DNA from: Candidatus Bathyoplasma sp. NZ
GTDB lineage: Bacteria; Bacillota_I; Bacilli_A; MAG-NZ
DNA: 45,435 nucleotides
Direction: 5' to 3'
Assembly (NCBI GenBank): GCA_013332095.1
Contig: JABENI010000014.1
Span: forward strand, 1-45,435
Notes under the pieces: model-generated
Seen by the model: the letters and a program-made list of their open reading frames with translations, nothing else
Told to the model about the DNA's origin: nothing
The model's database searches: none
Program-made: the position numbers and the translations under genes
Shown: piece by piece, positions 5,463-42,656 of the stretch
How the letters are laid out: each line of letters starts with the position of its first letter
Position numbering within the stretch: the stretch's first letter is position 1

Positions 5463-5491
5463 AGTATATCACATCAAATTCCAAAAGTCTA
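5463..5491 (-). promoter_or_regulatory. Predicted vegetative promoter of the 1243-residue surface protein
   Basis: On the minus strand, TAGACT (5491-5486) and TATACT (5468-5463) are separated by 17 bases. TG one base upstream of the -10 makes it an extended -10 element. Predicted leader is about 35 nt to the ATG at 5421. Confidence 0.6.
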
Positions 5492-5599
5492 CATATTTTT
5501 TTGTTTTTTTGCAATATTTTTTTGTTTTTTATAAAAATAAGTAAAAACACTGCTATATTATTAAAAGTTAATATATCTGGTTTTTTTGTTATAAATACC

Positions 5600-34511: not shown

Positions 34512-34540
34512 AAATAAAAAGAGGCACTAGCCTCTCTTTC
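34512..34540 (-). terminator. Terminator overlapping the 3' end of the 300-residue gene
   Basis: Six-bp stem AGAGGC/GCCTCT with a four-base loop, then TTTTTA on the minus strand. The first arm lies within the last codons and the stop codon is in the loop region. Confidence 0.75.
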
Positions 34541-35429
34541 TGCCAAATCTAATAATTTTTTCTGTTGCATATAGACATTCAGAATTGTCCAATTTTTTGG
34601 GTATGTTTAAATGTTTATACGCTTTCAATAAAATAGAAATATCATGCACAAACTCAAATTTAAATTTGAATTCATCAACATAACCATCTGCTTCAATACA
34701 CAGCGTTCCATATCCTCTTTTCGCCCATGACGGACTCAGTATTTTTCCATAATATTTTTCATATCTAAATGCCTTAGACATGCCGTTCCCATCCGAATCA
34801 TCTTCAACTTGTATTGTTTCTTTTATGATCGATTCTTCATCAATATATTCTACAGTGATTGAATTTTTAAAAATCCACTTATCCACTACTCTAAATTTCT
34901 TATCAAAAGACAAATTTATTTTGCAATCCTCTACTAACATTGGTTTTTTATCCCATTGCCAACCAATTTTAATAAAAACATATGTTTTATTTTTTGCATG
35001 ATGAAATTTAACTGCATCTGAATAAACTTTACAACTTGAGAAAATACCAACTGAATTTAAAACTCTTAATTCAACTACATTTTTCAAACTTCTAAGTAAT
35101 GCTACTTCATCCATGCTATAACCATATTGGTATAACAATTCAATTGAATACATTGCTCTTTTTTCCATCTCAGTCTGTAGATGTCTCTCAAAAACTACTA
35201 ATCCCTCCACATCAAATTTCTTATGTGTTCTTTCTTTAAGCGATAATTCTTGCAAGTCTTTAAATAAATTATATTCATTTATAGCTCTTGGGAATTTCAT
35301 TTTTTTGAGATAATTATCACTTCTTTTTTTTTCATTTCCATATATTTTAAGATATTTAAGCCAATAATTTAAAAAAACAATAAATACTACTGCTATAACT
35401 GCTATTCCAAAGGCTAAACGAAGTTGCAT
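34527..35429 (-). CDS. Membrane-anchored protein of unknown function, downstream of agrD
   Basis: The 300-residue protein has one N-terminal membrane helix (residues ~3-24, LAFGIAVIAVVFIVFLNYWL) with a positively charged following segment, then a soluble domain. The middle contains helical 'EMEKRAMYSIELLYQYGYSMDEVALLRSLKN' (partly quoted). The second half is beta-rich with many aromatic residues ('YVFIKIGWQWDKKPM'). I do not recognise a family. It lacks the multiple helices and the catalytic His/Cys of AgrB. It is the next gene after the AgrD-like peptide, separated by a strong hairpin, and ends in a terminator. Linkage suggests co-regulation with the agr-like system. Confidence 0.65.
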   Translation of the reverse strand: MQLRLAFGIAVIAVVFIVFLNYWLKYLKIYGNEKKRSDNYLKKMKFPRAINEYNLFKDLQELSLKERTHKKFDVEGLVVFERHLQTEMEKRAMYSIELLYQYGYSMDEVALLRSLKNVVELRVLNSVGIFSSCKVYSDAVKFHHAKNKTYVFIKIGWQWDKKPMLVEDCKINLSFDKKFRVVDKWIFKNSITVEYIDEESIIKETIQVEDDSDGNGMSKAFRYEKYYGKILSPSWAKRGYGTLCIEADGYVDEFKFKFEFVHDISILLKAYKHLNIPKKLDNSECLYATEKIIRFGRKRG

Positions 35430-35463: not shown

Positions 35464-35499
35464 TTACTAACTATTTAAAAAATTTAAAATAGTTAGTAA
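35464..35499. promoter_or_regulatory. Long hairpin between agrD and the 300-residue gene
   Basis: A perfect 13-bp inverted repeat (TTACTAACTATTT with its complement, arms 35464-35476 and 35487-35499) with a 10-base loop. On the minus strand, in the direction of transcription of agrD, no T-tract follows. A T-rich run follows on the plus strand, where no gene is seen. It may stabilise the agrD mRNA 3' end or partly separate expression of the two genes. Confidence 0.6.
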
Positions 35500-35533: not shown

Positions 35534-35677
35534 TTAAAATTTTCTTAATTTGCTTGCGCTCTCTGGTAATTCTGGTTGGTGTAAGTAGAAAAGACAAGTT
35601 GAATTAGCACTAACTACTGCCACTAATAAAGCTAACCCTGATATTACTTTTCCATATTTCGTTAAAAATAAATTCAT
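35534..35677 (-). CDS. agrD: AgrD-like cyclic (thio)lactone autoinducer pre-peptide
   Basis: This 47-residue frame was found by reading the gap behind the histidine kinase gene. It has an N-terminal amphipathic/hydrophobic leader (MNLFLTKYGKVISGLALLVA), a core 'ANSTCLFYL' with Cys28, and an acidic/proline tail 'HQPELPE'. That is the hallmark of clostridial-type AgrD peptides such as C. perfringens AgrD (SAC..WFTHQPEEP). By analogy the mature signal would be a five-residue thiolactone ring Cys28-Leu-Phe-Tyr-Leu32 with a short N-terminal tail; ring and tail lengths are inferred. A very strong GGAGGAGGGG site precedes the ATG. It follows the AgrC-like kinase, and no AgrB peptidase gene is present in the window. 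Confidence 0.85.
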   Translation of the reverse strand: MNLFLTKYGKVISGLALLVAVVSANSTCLFYLHQPELPESASKLRKF

Positions 35678-35713
35678 TTTCTTCCCCTCCTCCCATACAT
35701 TCTCATGTAGAGA

Positions 35714-35768
35714 ATACTACAGATAATCCGATTTTTCACTTAAATGTAAAAATTAATATCTTTTTTGT
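35714..35768 (-). promoter_or_regulatory. LytTR-type direct repeat and agrD promoter
   Basis: On the minus strand ACAAAAAAG (35768-35760) and ACATTTAAG (35747-35739) form a 9-bp direct repeat with a 12-base spacer, the spacing of AgrA boxes in Staphylococcus (consensus ACAGTTAAG). The second half matches 8 of 9 bases and the first 6 of 9. A TG plus TAGTAT -10-like element (35719-35714) follows 19 bases downstream and lacks a good -35, as expected for an activated promoter. A small ATTCTC/GAGAAT hairpin (35699-35715) lies in the leader. Confidence 0.55.
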
Positions 35769-35784
35769 AATAATTAATGTTTTT

Positions 35785-37074
35785 TTAAATTATTAACTGT
35801 ATTTTTACACTGAAAATATTATCAGAAATTTTAAATTCAAGATTCCCATTATTTTTTAAAATGATAGCTTTTACATTTTTTAATCCTATTCCATGGTTTC
35901 TTTTATCTGCCTTTGTTGTCGTAAATTTGAAATTTTTATCATAGATTAATTTTTTACTATAGTAATTGCTTATTTTTATCAACAGTATATTTTGTACATA
36001 AAAAACTTTTAAATAAATTGTTTTCTTGCCATTTTGTACAGTTACATTTTCTATCGCATTATCTAGTAAATTTCCTAAAATACTGACCATGTCGAGATCA
36101 GAAACCTCTAATTTAGTTGGTACTTTTACATTAAGATCAAACTCAACATCATTTTCTTTAGCTTGGGAAACTTTATAATTGATAATACTATCTAAAAGGG
36201 CATTGTCAGTTTCTAATATTTTTTTAGGTTTAACTAGAATTTTATATTTTTCATCAATGCAAATTTTTGCTTCTTCTAGTTGTCCTCTATTTAAGTACTC
36301 TTTTAATGCAATCATTTGATTTTTGATGTCATGTTGAAGTGAACGAGCATCTGACAGTGATTTGTCAAAAAGATTAAGTTGTGCTATATACATTTTATTT
36401 CTTTCTAGCATTTTACAATATTCAACTTCATCCTCATAATCTCTAGTTATTTTATCATATAAATAAAAAATATAAATATTCAATAAAAATAAACACACTG
36501 TGCTTACTAGAATAATCCATAAGTTATAAGTGGGCAACAAAATGATAATAGTTACTAATGTGGAAACAACTGGAAATAATACTAATAAAAATATTGGTAT
36601 TTTTGATACTTCAAATCCATTTTTAACTGTTTTTGTTCGGACAAAGTACACTACAAAGATATAAGTTAATATTTTACAGATTATCAAGCCAATTATCATT
36701 TCATTATCTTTATTTAGTACCCCAGAAAAATAAGAAGAATTAATTAATTGAACCATCGCATAGACAGCGGACTCTATACAAAATGTTAACGTATAAATAA
36801 TTATCATTATTCTCAAACTTTTTAAATAATTTCGGCTATAAATTAAAGCAATTAAAAATAGTGCTACCGTGTTAATAAATAAATTCATTTTCGGCTGACC
36901 GATTTTAATAACCAATAAAGTGCTAACTAAATAGTAAACAATATATAGAATAATTTCTAATTTTTTATTTATCTCTTTTTTCACAAAAAAACCATTCATA
37001 AAATAACCAAGTGTATAAACATTAAAAATATTAGCAATAATGTAGGTATACTGTAAATTATTCAAATTTATCAC
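35785..37074 (-). CDS. AgrC-like sensor histidine kinase, copy 1
   Basis: The 429-residue protein has about six to seven membrane helices in residues 1-205, followed by a coiled linker and a GHKL kinase domain of the AgrC (HPK10) class. The phosphoacceptor His248 is in 'LQHDIKNQ', the N-box is 'NLLDNAIE' (Asn335, Asn339) and the G-box is 'NHGIGLKNVK'. AgrC senses the cyclic peptide made from AgrD. It overlaps the response regulator upstream by 17 bp, and agrD follows 107 bp after its stop. It is highly similar to the kinase at 38066-39358 (shared starts, 'YFVRTKTVKxGFEV', same domain lengths), indicating duplication. The cognate peptide is presumably the adjacent AgrD. Confidence 0.88.
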   Translation of the reverse strand: MINLNNLQYTYIIANIFNVYTLGYFMNGFFVKKEINKKLEIILYIVYYLVSTLLVIKIGQPKMNLFINTVALFLIALIYSRNYLKSLRIMIIIYTLTFCIESAVYAMVQLINSSYFSGVLNKDNEMIIGLIICKILTYIFVVYFVRTKTVKNGFEVSKIPIFLLVLFPVVSTLVTIIILLPTYNLWIILVSTVCLFLLNIYIFYLYDKITRDYEDEVEYCKMLERNKMYIAQLNLFDKSLSDARSLQHDIKNQMIALKEYLNRGQLEEAKICIDEKYKILVKPKKILETDNALLDSIINYKVSQAKENDVEFDLNVKVPTKLEVSDLDMVSILGNLLDNAIENVTVQNGKKTIYLKVFYVQNILLIKISNYYSKKLIYDKNFKFTTTKADKRNHGIGLKNVKAIILKNNGNLEFKISDNIFSVKIQLII

Positions 37075-37780
37075 CCATAAATTTTAAATATTCACTTCTT
37101 GCTTTTTTCAGATATTGTTGACTTATCGGCAATTCAATTCCATTTATTAAAACAACATCGCTCCTACTAAATTTTTCTATATACTCAGCGTTCACGGCAT
37201 AAGATTTATGAATTCGAATAAATTTACTATCATTTAGTATATTTACGAAATTTGTCAATTTGTCATAGCAAATATATGTCTTTTGGTTAGAGTAAACAGT
37301 TATTATTCTTTTGTCACTTTTTATAAACATAATTTTATCTTTCATTACTCTATGTAAAATACTTTTAAATTTGAAAATTATAGAATATTCATTTTCATCA
37401 CACTGCTTAAAATATGATGTCATAACAGAAAATAGCTTTTCATCTGTTATTGGTTTAATTAGAAAATCAAACGGTCTATTTTTAAACAAATCAATGGCAT
37501 ATGTGGCTTTTCCAGAAACATAAATAATTTCAAGTTTCTTAATATTAAACTTCCTTCTAAGGTATTTACCTATTTCAATTCCATCTGAATCACCTAGTTC
37601 AATGTCTAAAAACAACAAATCATATTCTATCAGATTTTCTATATCCTTTACTAAATTTTTGTAGTCAGTATAAATTGTAAGTTCGAATTCATTATTTTCA
37701 AAAAATGAATATTTATTTAATTTTTCTTTTAAATTTTGACAAAATATGCTTTCGTCATCACAAATAGCAATACTGAACAT
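37058..37780 (-). CDS. AgrA-like LytTR response regulator, copy 1
   Basis: The 240-residue protein has a receiver domain (acidic pocket Asp8-Asp9, phosphoacceptor Asp59 in 'LLFLDIELG', conserved Lys109 in 'FLIKP') and a C-terminal LytTR DNA-binding domain ('FIKSDKRIITVYS...FIRIHKSYAVNAEYI'). Such regulators bind paired 9-bp direct repeats; one is seen before agrD. It overlaps its kinase by 17 bp. It is a close paralogue of the regulator at 39339-40061. AAAAGGAG precedes the ATG. Confidence 0.9.
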   Translation of the reverse strand: MFSIAICDDESIFCQNLKEKLNKYSFFENNEFELTIYTDYKNLVKDIENLIEYDLLFLDIELGDSDGIEIGKYLRRKFNIKKLEIIYVSGKATYAIDLFKNRPFDFLIKPITDEKLFSVMTSYFKQCDENEYSIIFKFKSILHRVMKDKIMFIKSDKRIITVYSNQKTYICYDKLTNFVNILNDSKFIRIHKSYAVNAEYIEKFSRSDVVLINGIELPISQQYLKKARSEYLKFMGDKFE

Positions 37781-38065
37781 TTTTTTCTCCTTTTTAAATA
37801 TTATTTGAAAATATTAATAATATAAGTTTATCTCTATCTAATTCAGTTTTATTTTTTAATACCAAATTTTTTGATATTTAATATTTTTATTAAAACCTTT
37901 TCCAGATTTTATATTCTTTATATGGTTATCATTGGTAAAATTGATCGCATTGTTATTCTTTAAAAACTGATAATATTGTGTAGAATTGTATGTATAATTT
38001 ACCATTCAATATTTCTAAAAATAATTTTTAATTTTATAATCACAAAGTAATCTATTTTTTATTCA

Positions 38066-39358
38066 TTAATTCAACTGCACTTTTACTGTAAAAATATTCT
38101 CACAAATTTCAAATTCAATGCTACCATCAAGCATTTCAATAGTACTTTTTACATTTTCTAGTCCGATTCCATGATTTTTTTTATCTGCTTTCGTACTAGT
38201 AAATTTTAGTTTTTTCTTATCATAAATTATTTTTTTATTAAAATAGTTAGAAATTTTTATAATTAATACATTATGAATATAACGCATTTTCAAATAAACA
38301 GTTTTTTTATTATTTTGTATACTAACATTTTCCATTGCATTATCTAATAAATTACCAAAGATACTAACCATATCTTCATCAGGGAAATCAATTTTATCTG
38401 GTATTATTACATCTAAATTAAATTCAACATTATTTTCTTTTCCTTCATATATTTTATAATTAATAATGCTGTCTATAGAAAAATTATCGGTTTTCAAACT
38501 TTTTTCCGCTGTATCTAAAATAATATATTTTTGATTGATAATTTTTAAAGCTTTTTCCGATTGATTTGTATTTAAGTATTCTGTTACTAAAATCATTTGA
38601 TTTTTTATGTCGTGCTGGAGTAAACTAACATTTTTAAGTGTTTCTTGATAAAATGTAAGTTGCATATCATACATCCTATTTCTTTCGATTATTTTATAAA
38701 ATTTTATCTCTTCTTCATAATCTTTAATCAACTTGCCATACAAGTAAAACACATAAATATTTAAAACAAATAGAAGTATTGTATTCATTAAAATTAAAAA
38801 TAAGTTTTGTGTTGAAAACAAAGTTGTAATTGTCATGATAATAGAAAATATTGGAAAAGAAACTAATATAACAGTTGGTATTTTAGCTACTTCAAAGCCA
38901 CTTTTTACTGTTTTCGTTCGAATAAAATATAATGCAAAAATATATGTTAATATTTTCGATAGTACTAAACTAACTATAATCTCCTTATTTGAAGTTAAAT
39001 ATTCTGAAAAATATTTCTCATTAATCAATCTAACTCCAACGTATACTATTGATTCAATACAAAATGCCAATGTATAAACGATTATAGTTACTCTCACACT
39101 TTTAAGAAAATTGCGACTATACATCAAAGAAATCAATAATAATCCACCTAAACTGACTAATAAATTGATTGATGGATCTTCAATTAAAATAATTAGAGTA
39201 GTACTGAGTAAATAAAAAATAATGTGGATACCAACTTCTAATTTTTTGTTTATATCAGTTTTATTAAAAAAACCATTCATAAAATAATAGAGAGTATAAA
39301 TGTTGAAGATATTAGTTACAATATAGGTCCATTGTAAATTACTCAAATCTAGCACCAA
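38066..39358 (-). CDS. AgrC-like sensor histidine kinase, copy 2
   Basis: The 430-residue paralogue of the 35785-37074 kinase has the same order of features: about six to seven membrane helices, His249 in 'LQHDIKNQ', N-box 'NLLDNAME', G-box 'NHGIGLENVK'. The N-terminal sensor domains differ more than the kinase core, so ligand specificity may differ. It overlaps its regulator by 20 bp. No convincing AgrD-like frame lies immediately downstream, so this copy may share the single AgrD, respond to another peptide, or have lost its ligand gene. Confidence 0.87.
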   Translation of the reverse strand: MVLDLSNLQWTYIVTNIFNIYTLYYFMNGFFNKTDINKKLEVGIHIIFYLLSTTLIILIEDPSINLLVSLGGLLLISLMYSRNFLKSVRVTIIVYTLAFCIESIVYVGVRLINEKYFSEYLTSNKEIIVSLVLSKILTYIFALYFIRTKTVKSGFEVAKIPTVILVSFPIFSIIMTITTLFSTQNLFLILMNTILLFVLNIYVFYLYGKLIKDYEEEIKFYKIIERNRMYDMQLTFYQETLKNVSLLQHDIKNQMILVTEYLNTNQSEKALKIINQKYIILDTAEKSLKTDNFSIDSIINYKIYEGKENNVEFNLDVIIPDKIDFPDEDMVSIFGNLLDNAMENVSIQNNKKTVYLKMRYIHNVLIIKISNYFNKKIIYDKKKLKFTSTKADKKNHGIGLENVKSTIEMLDGSIEFEICENIFTVKVQLN

Positions 39359-40702: not shown

Positions 40703-42400
40703 TTTATATAATTTTCCAATATAATTAGTTAATTTATCTTGAAAATAATCAATTTACTTTCAAAATTTATAAATTGAGTAATATATCATATTACAATTTT
40801 ACTACAAATAATTTTAAAAACAAATGAAATTATGTATAAATTTTTATTTTTCTGCAAATCTTGAACATTTTTTCTATTTATAAAATTAAACTATAACTGA
40901 ATATCATTCTAATATTTTAAATTACTTTTAATTCACATCAAAGATAAATTGTTTTTCAATCTCAATTATTTATAAAATTTTCCATTCAAGTTCTAAAATT
41001 TTACTATTTATCGTAAAATAAATTATTTTATTTCCAAAATTTACCAATCGTGTTCATCTGTTATAATACAATTTTACTATAAATAATTATAAAAATAAAC
41101 AAAAATCATATTTGAATCTAATATTTTATTATTTTTAGATTCCCATTCCCTCAAGTTCATACATAGTCGAAACACCTCAGCTAAATTTGATTTTCCTTTT
41201 ATTAGTGAATTTTTATAAATTCCGAATTATTTATAAAATTTTCCATTCAAGTTCCAAAATTTTATTATTTATTGCAAAGTAACTTACTTTATTTCCAAAA
41301 TTTGCCAATCGTGTTCATCTGTTATATTACAATTTTACTATAAATAATTATAAAAATAAACAAAAATCATATTTGAATCTAATATTTTAATATTTTTAGA
41401 TTCCCATTCCCTCAAGTTCATACATAATCAAAACATCTCAGCTAAATTTGGTTTTCTTTTTATTAATGAATTTTTTTAAATTTCGAGTTATTTATAAAAT
41501 TTTCCATTCAAGTTCCAAAATTTTGTTATTTATCTTAAAATAAATTAGTTTATTTCCAAAATTTCCCAATCGTGTTCATCTGTTATAATACAATTTTACT
41601 ATAAATAATTATAAAAATAAACAAAAATCATATTTGAATCTAATATTTTATTATTTTTAGATTCTCCATTCTCTCAAGTTCACACATAATCGAAACATCT
41701 CAGCTAAGTTTGGTTTTCTTTTTATTAATGAATTTTTTTAAATTTCGAGTTATTTATAAAATTTTCCATTCAAGTTCCAAAATTTTATTATTTATTGCAA
41801 AGTAATTTACTTTATTTCCAAAATTTGCCAATCGTGTTCATCTGTTATATTACAATTTTACTATAAATAATTATAAAAATAAACAAAAATCATATTTGAA
41901 TCTAATATTTTATTATTTTTAGATTCTCCATTCTCTCAAGTTCACACATAATTAAAACATCTCAGCTAAATTTGGTTTTCTTTTTATTAATGAATTTTTT
42001 TAAATTTCGAATTATTTATAAAATTTTCCATTCAAGCTCCAAAATTTTATTATTTATTGCAAGGTAACTTGCTTTATTTCCAAAATTTGCCAATCGTGTT
42101 CACCTGTTATATTACAATTTTACTATAAATAATTATAAAAATAAACAAAAATCATATTTAAATCTATTATTTTTAGATTCTGCATTCTCTCAAGTTCATA
42201 CATAATCGAAACATCTCAGCTAAATTTGGTTTTCTTTTTATTAATGAATTTTTTTAAATTTCGAATTATTTATAAAATTTTCCATTCAAGTTCCAAAATT
42301 TTATTATTTATCGCAAAATCATTTGCTTTATTTCCAAAATTTGCCAGTCGTGTTCATTTGTTATATTATAATTTTACTATAAAAAAACTTTAAAACAAGT
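40703..42400. repeat. Non-coding tandem array of ~261-bp repeats
   Basis: The motif tccattcaag recurs at 40981, 41242, 41503, 41765, 42027 (as tccattcaag with one c change nearby) and 42281, giving periods of 261, 261, 262, 262 and 254 bp. Units are very similar over their whole length. A more decayed unit precedes the array (from about 40703). Each unit contains two AAAATTTT blocks 21 bp apart, an inverted repeat of the AAAGTAA/TTACTTT type, a TGTTATAAT- or TGTTATATT-like element on the plus strand, and a GAATCTAA/TTAGATTC hairpin. No long reading frame is seen. It separates the agr-like locus from murC. Confidence 0.9.
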
Positions 42401-42656
42401 GCAATATTAATTTTATTTTTTTATAATTATTCCTTCACCTCCATTTAAAATTCACAATTTGATTAAACCATTAAACTAATATTTCAAACATATTTTATTT
42501 ACCTGTTGATCATTTATCTCTAGTTTAGTTATTTTAAAATTTTTCTTTGTGTACTATATTTTTTTGATTAAATTGTCATAAAAACTATAAATTGCGATAA
42601 TTATCTAATTGTTCATGTTGTGATGTTATTTTACTACAAAAAAATTTTAAATGCAA
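42401..42656. repeat. Decayed flank of the 261-bp array
   Basis: AT-rich, gene-free sequence. Around 42598-42655 the text (gcgataatta... tgttcatgtt... ttttactaca) matches the central part of the 261-bp unit with many changes, suggesting an old degenerate copy. The rest shows no feature I can name. Confidence 0.5.

What the first reader, a model, noticed from the sequence alone, without database searches (positions are those of the whole stretch)
35534..35677. Unannotated AgrD-type autoinducer gene
Seen: a 47-codon frame with a hydrophobic leader, 'ANSTCLFYL' core and 'HQPELPE' tail behind an AgrC-like kinase, with a very strong ribosome-binding site. Known: clostridial-type AgrD peptides share Cys plus four residues followed by HQPExP. 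Inferred: a five-residue thiolactone signal made from Cys28-Leu32. Such a peptide would define a specific signalling group for this species.
Basis: partly seen in the sequence, partly recalled or inferred. Interest (0 to 1): 0.8.

Follow-up and report, generated by a model that had tools for sequence, protein, structure and literature searches.

The report
Split agr quorum-sensing signal gene
The small gene is a genuine AgrD-type peptide-signal gene of a deep-branching Bacilli bacterium; its processing enzyme (AgrB) lies elsewhere in the genome, and its promoter has been copied in front of a streptolysin/listeriolysin-like peptide-toxin gene cluster, which hints at what the signal controls.

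Summary
Window 35534-35677(-) is a 47-codon frame matching NCBIfam TIGR04223 (AgrD) at 49.7 bits against a cut-off of 19. It has AGGAGG 8 nt before the ATG and is the only AgrD in the genome. The Cys28-Leu32 ring followed by HQPELPE fits the family.

(1) The genome's only AgrB is on another contig among housekeeping genes, with no AgrD or kinase beside it. AgrB and AgrD are each closest to the partners in one A-C-D-B operon of another Bacilli genome, so they are probably cognate. (2) Two kinase/regulator pairs, about 58% alike, precede agrD. (3) agrD has its own promoter region with a 21-bp-period direct repeat, the geometry of an AgrA site. About 290 bp (agrC 3' end plus this promoter, stopping before the RBS) was copied in front of a TOMM peptide cluster (E=1.3e-30).

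A similar site lies upstream of a Cas13a gene, but a match of that score arises by chance in about 11% of simulated genomes: tentative. Peptide production, binding and regulation are inferred, not shown.

The parts
35534..35677 (-). agrD: 47-aa AgrD precursor; hydrophobic leader (3-24), probable ring Cys28-Leu32, tail HQPELPESASKLRKF
   Evidence: TIGR04223 49.7 bits vs cut-off 19; only AgrD in genome; alignment to other AgrDs
35684..35694 (-). Shine-Dalgarno region GGGAGGAGGGG, 8-nt spacing from AGGAGG to ATG
   Evidence: sequence
35739..35773 (-). candidate AgrA-type direct-repeat site in the agrD promoter: ACAAAAAAG (35768-35760) - 12 bp - ACATTTAAG (35747-35739), 21-bp period; -10-like TAGTAT at 35719-35714
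   Evidence: 21-bp-period direct repeat, 16/21 p=0.007 and 12/13 p=0.003 in 107 bp; copied to C36; binding not shown
35700..35990 (-). segment (agrC2 3' end + agrD promoter) that has an 86-90% identical copy in front of the TOMM cluster on contig C36
35785..37074 (-). agrC2: GHKL sensor kinase with hydrophobic N-terminal half and LQHDIKNQM histidine box
   Evidence: PF14501 82.3 bits; hydropathy
37058..37780 (-). agrA2: receiver + LytTR response regulator
   Evidence: PF00072 and PF04397 over cut-off
38066..39358 (-). agrC1: paralogous kinase, 58% identical to agrC2
   Evidence: PF14501 75.1 bits
39339..40061 (-). agrA1: paralogous LytTR response regulator, 59% identical to agrA2
35464..35499 (-). 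AT-rich 13-bp inverted repeat directly behind agrD, where agrB stands in A-C-D-B relatives
   Evidence: fold z = -4.87; function unknown

Best explanation
The frame is agrD of a complete but dispersed agr-type quorum-sensing system. AgrD is cut and cyclised by the single AgrB of the genome, encoded on another contig (C34:106373-106942). The product is probably a thiolactone of Cys28-Leu32 with a short N-terminal tail. It is exported and sensed by AgrC2 and/or AgrC1, which phosphorylate the LytTR regulators AgrA2/AgrA1. Phospho-AgrA most likely binds the direct repeat in the agrD promoter (positive feedback) and its copy in front of a TOMM cluster on C36, so that a modified peptide toxin or bacteriocin is made at high density. 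Shown here: gene identities, unlinked agrB, paired kinases, promoter copy. Inferred: processing, ring, sensing, binding and direction of regulation.
For: AgrD profile match and uniqueness. Single AgrB at 135.4 bits with H-x6-C spacing, no AgrD nearby. AgrB and AgrD independently rank the same operon first (G332:C53, order A-C-D-B): AgrB identity 31% vs 28% and less for the rest, AgrD score 100 vs 91 and less; the next AgrBs (G035, G013) go with the fourth- and second-ranked AgrDs. Promoter copy: 87% over 105 bp, E=1.3e-30, ending just before the agrD RBS, followed by a Cys/Ser/Thr-rich 53-aa frame about 120 bp past the site and then SagB (129.9 bits, cut-off 78.4), SagC-like, YcaO, Rce1-like protease and ABC transporter genes. 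A 22/27 match to the site with a 1-bp longer spacer lies 41 bp before agrB, p=0.0024 for a 150-bp region.
Against: No expression, peptide or binding data. No close relative with agr is held, so there is no conservation test of the ring or the site. The agrB upstream match is weak: one other of 125 upstream regions scores as high. The copied promoter is no better conserved than the decayed agrC piece beside it (86% vs 90%), so selection on it is not shown. Support for the deep placement of this AgrB in the tree is poor.
Confidence: 0.75

Rival explanations
1. A decaying agr system: agrB was separated from the operon and the remaining agrB and agrD persist without making a working signal.
For: agrB is not beside agrD; a broken agrC copy exists on C36; the other genomes of the family held here, G001-G003, have no agr.
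Against: agrD, agrB and both kinase/regulator pairs are all intact open frames; AgrD keeps the family positions and a strong RBS; AgrB keeps H-x6-C.
Confidence: 0.12
2. agrD works with another processing enzyme, and the C34 AgrB serves a different, unrecognised peptide.
For: agrB is not linked to agrD; degenerate AgrD-like peptides can be missed by the profile.
Against: No second AgrD over the cut-off in the genome and no candidate seen in the 3.5 kb around agrB; AgrB and AgrD point to the same partner lineage.
Confidence: 0.08
3. The agr system works, but the promoter copy upstream of the TOMM cluster is an accidental transposition scar with no regulatory role.
For: IS240-type transposase remnant upstream; the copied agrC piece is as conserved as the promoter.
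Against: The copy stops between promoter and RBS and is oriented into a complete TOMM operon; 25 of 27 half-site positions are kept.
Confidence: 0.3

Closest known systems
Staphylococcus aureus agrBDCA
   Same: AgrD with Cys+4 ring and Glu/Pro-containing tail, AgrB, GHKL kinase, LytTR regulator; AgrA binds direct repeats upstream of its promoters (PMC4227749)
   Different: Here the order is A1-C1-A2-C2-D, agrB is remote, the kinase/regulator pair is doubled, agrD probably has its own promoter; PF05931 is just missed
Clostridial-type agrBD (C. perfringens, C. difficile agr1)
   Same: AgrD with a Cys ring and HQP/YQP-x-x-P-like tail (TIGR04223 type)
   Different: There agrB and agrD are adjacent and the two-component system may be remote (own knowledge); here it is agrB that is remote
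agr operons of other Bacilli genomes (G332:C53 and G035, order A-C-D-B; G013 with agrACD and agrB apart)
   Same: Gene order A-C-D and closest AgrD/AgrB sequences; G013 shows the same separation of agrB
   Different: G013 keeps a second complete agrBD elsewhere; the window genome has only one agrB and one agrD
Streptolysin S / listeriolysin S type TOMM clusters
   Same: SagB, SagC-like, YcaO, CAAX-type protease, ABC transporter and Cys-rich precursor on C36
   Different: Precursor is below the listeriolysin S cut-off (27.8 vs 33); the operon sits behind a copy of the agrD promoter

Membership tests
AgrD (TIGR04223) | Profile score over curated cut-off | tested here: met
   49.7 vs 19 bits, profile positions 2-38 of 38
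AgrD (TIGR04223) | Cys (or Ser) ring residue, then 4 residues, then QP-x-x-P type tail | tested here: met
   C28-L-F-Y-L-HQPELP; Q34, P35 and P38 invariant in five aligned AgrDs
AgrD (TIGR04223) | Amphipathic/hydrophobic N-terminal leader | tested here: met
   Hydrophobic stretch 3-24; amphipathicity not computed
AgrD (TIGR04223) | Processed to a thiolactone/lactone peptide by AgrB | not testable with these tools
   needs mass spectrometry
agr quorum-sensing system | AgrB present in the genome | tested here: met
   PF04647 136 bits vs 23, on contig C34
agr quorum-sensing system | AgrB encoded next to AgrD (usual, not required for function) | tested here: not met
   none in the window; AgrB on another contig with housekeeping neighbours
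agr quorum-sensing system | GHKL kinase and LytTR regulator next to AgrD | tested here: met
   two pairs
agr quorum-sensing system | AgrA direct-repeat site at the agrD promoter | tested here: inconclusive
   21-bp-period repeat p=0.003-0.007; no binding test
TOMM (streptolysin S-like) cluster on C36 | SagB dehydrogenase and SagC/SagD cyclodehydratase | tested here: met
   TIGR03605 129.9 vs 78.4; YcaO PF02624 93.8 vs 25.7; SagC-like (93.3) and SagD-like (167.5) below their NCBIfam cut-offs of 187.65 and 219.25
TOMM (streptolysin S-like) cluster on C36 | Recognised precursor peptide | tested here: inconclusive
   listeriolysin S family 27.8 vs cut-off 33
Cas13a (type VI-A) on C15 | Family profile and two HEPN R-x4-H motifs | tested here: met
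   NF038188 158.3 vs 150; PADLOC 165 bits; RNASIH and RNYYAH in the translation
Cas13a (type VI-A) on C15 | CRISPR array | tested here: inconclusive
   none within about 10 kb; no cluster of a type VI repeat-end pattern in the genome

The most novel reading that the evidence does not exclude
One agr signal made by a dispersed agr system directly drives, through copies of the same AgrA site, its own precursor gene, an unlinked agrB, a TOMM toxin/bacteriocin operon and the RNA-targeting CRISPR nuclease Cas13a: attack and phage defence under one density signal. In S. aureus the agr effect on a CRISPR system is reported as indirect (PMC12462963).
Probability: 0.25. Interest if true: 0.8.

Novelty: new variant of a known kind. 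Interest (0 to 1): 0.52.

Why it matters
It adds a signalling group from a poorly known branch of Bacilli and shows that agrB can be separated from its substrate gene, so searches for agr loci by AgrB-AgrD adjacency will miss systems of this kind. The promoter copy in front of a TOMM cluster gives a concrete, testable output for the signal. If the Cas13a site holds, it would be a direct link from peptide quorum sensing to RNA-targeting immunity.

Tried and rejected
A lost agrD between agrC1 and agrA2 (37781-38065): only a 49-aa frame without a family match. A second AgrD near agrB on C34: none. Contamination as the reason for the split: both contigs carry housekeeping genes and the stated contamination is 0.19%. 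Close relatives of AgrC in the named genome collection: none found; the tyrS neighbourhoods fetched from named genomes show no agr genes. A shared agrB/agrD motif by free comparison did not stand out. The Cas13a site looked exceptional when scored on half-sites only (none as good in 239 million simulated positions), but that mask was chosen after seeing it; the unbiased BLAST null gives p of about 0.11 (0.24 with intergenic composition), so I treat it as tentative. Literature on an unlinked agrB or on agr-controlled TOMM clusters: none found in the titles and abstracts listed.

Full report
CHECK OF THE OBSERVATION. The frame 35534-35677(-) exists as described. It matches TIGR04223 at 49.7 bits (cut-off 19) and is the only match over the cut-off in the whole genome. 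The staphylococcal Pfam model gives E=4e-4, just under its cut-off. The Shine-Dalgarno AGGAGG lies 8 nt before the ATG. The Cys28-Leu32 block is followed by HQPELPE; Q34, P35 and P38 are invariant among five AgrDs aligned from Bacilli genomes. Ring size and thiolactone are inferred from the family.

SURROUNDINGS. On the minus strand the order is agrA1 (40061-39339), agrC1, agrA2 (37780-37058), agrC2, agrD. Both kinases carry HATPase_c_5 and both regulators carry receiver plus LytTR domains. The pairs are 58-59% identical, so they are an old duplication. No agrD lies between the pairs. Behind agrD come an AT-rich inverted repeat (z -4.87) and a 300-aa protein with one N-terminal hydrophobic segment and no family.

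AGRB IS ELSEWHERE. The genome (1.82 Mb, 44 contigs, 97.35% complete; the window is the whole of contig C9) has one AgrB, on C34:106373-106942. It sits between a 292-aa exonuclease-like protein and a MATE-type transporter (names by eye), in a run of housekeeping genes, with no AgrD or kinase. It keeps the H-x6-C spacing of the catalytic pair (sequence; the catalytic role is established knowledge). Of 395 genomes of the class, 29 have an AgrD over the cut-off, and most have an AgrB within a few kb. G013 repeats the separation, with agrACD and agrB about 580 kb apart. AgrB and AgrD of the window genome independently pick the same best match, an A-C-D-B operon in G332 (AgrB 31% identity; AgrD score 100), and then the G035/G013 lineage. 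That agreement between two unlinked genes is the main evidence that they are partners; the tree itself has weak deep support.

PROMOTER. agrC2 and agrD are 107 bp apart. This gap holds a direct repeat of 21-bp period, readable as ACAAAAAAG-N12-ACATTTAAG. S. aureus AgrA binds two direct repeats upstream of P2 and P3 (PMC4227749); the 9-12-9 geometry and the near-match to its half-site are from my own knowledge, not tested. Against a Markov model of this genome's intergenic DNA the repeat has p=0.003 (12 of 13) to 0.007 (16 of 21). In G332 a terminator-like hairpin separates agrC from agrD (sequence), so a separate agrD promoter seems not unique to this genome.

COPY OF THE PROMOTER. A search of the genome with agrC2 found a broken 73-codon copy of its end on C36 (three stops). 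A DNA search with the agrD promoter found the same place at 87% over 105 bp, E=1.3e-30. The copy spans window 35990-35700: 90% over the agrC part, 86% over the promoter, no similarity from the RBS region on. Downstream, in order, are a 53-aa Cys/Ser/Thr-rich frame, a 96-aa membrane protein, SagB, SagC-like, YcaO, an Rce1-like protease, an ABC ATPase and a permease-like protein: a TOMM cluster of the streptolysin S/listeriolysin S kind. An IS240-type transposase remnant lies upstream. The plain reading is promoter capture: the agr promoter now drives the TOMM operon. Regulation is inferred.

FURTHER CANDIDATE SITES. A pattern built from the sites occurs three times in the genome with no further match within 3 mismatches, and none for the reversed control. 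The third is on C15, right after a terminator-like hairpin and about 210-250 bp upstream of a Cas13a gene (NF038188 158.3 vs 150 bits). It keeps 25 of 27 half-site positions but only 3 of 8 spacer positions. Because the pattern was built with this site, the fair test is the original BLAST score, and that arises by chance somewhere in 11-24% of simulated genomes. Its position in a promoter region helps, but I rate it at about 0.4. No CRISPR array was found nearby or by a type VI repeat-end pattern. Upstream of agrB a 22/27 match with a spacer 1 bp longer has p=0.0024 for one 150-bp region, with one equal among 125 regions: suggestive only.

WHERE IT COMES FROM. The 16S gene is about 84% identical to plasmid-borne copies of the Bacillus group, and tyrosyl-tRNA synthetase is at best 59% identical to named genomes, the nearest filed as Mycoplasmatota or Bacillota MAGs. 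It is a deep, unnamed branch of the Bacilli.

VERDICT. AgrD identity is near certain (0.97). A working dispersed agr system is likely (0.75 to 0.8). Control of the TOMM cluster is probable (0.65), control of cas13a possible (0.4). As an AgrD it is a new member of a known family; the dispersed layout and the captured promoter make it a new variant.

Noticed in passing
window 40780-42650: Non-coding tandem array of about six to seven 254-262-bp units (76-95% identical) upstream of the GNAT/agrA1 genes.
   Followed up: no
window 34527-35429: 300-aa protein with one N-terminal hydrophobic segment and no family match, directly behind agrD; takes the place of agrB in A-C-D-B operons.
   Followed up: partly
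L097 1040-4879 (G000:C15): Cas13a gene without a CRISPR array nearby, with an agrD-promoter-like repeat upstream.
   Followed up: partly
L085 3148-5455 (G000:C36): A second, internally deleted copy of the TOMM operon (membrane protein, fused SagB remnant, ABC ATPase, permease) just upstream of the intact one.
   Followed up: no
window 5480-5594: Two 22/27 matches to the AgrA-site pattern upstream of a 1243-aa Ig-like surface protein; the number expected by chance is not small.
   Followed up: no
G013 C1:1970676 and C1:1387160 (L033, L034): Independent case of agrACD and agrB far apart; its AgrD has Ser in place of Cys, so probably a lactone.
   Followed up: partly
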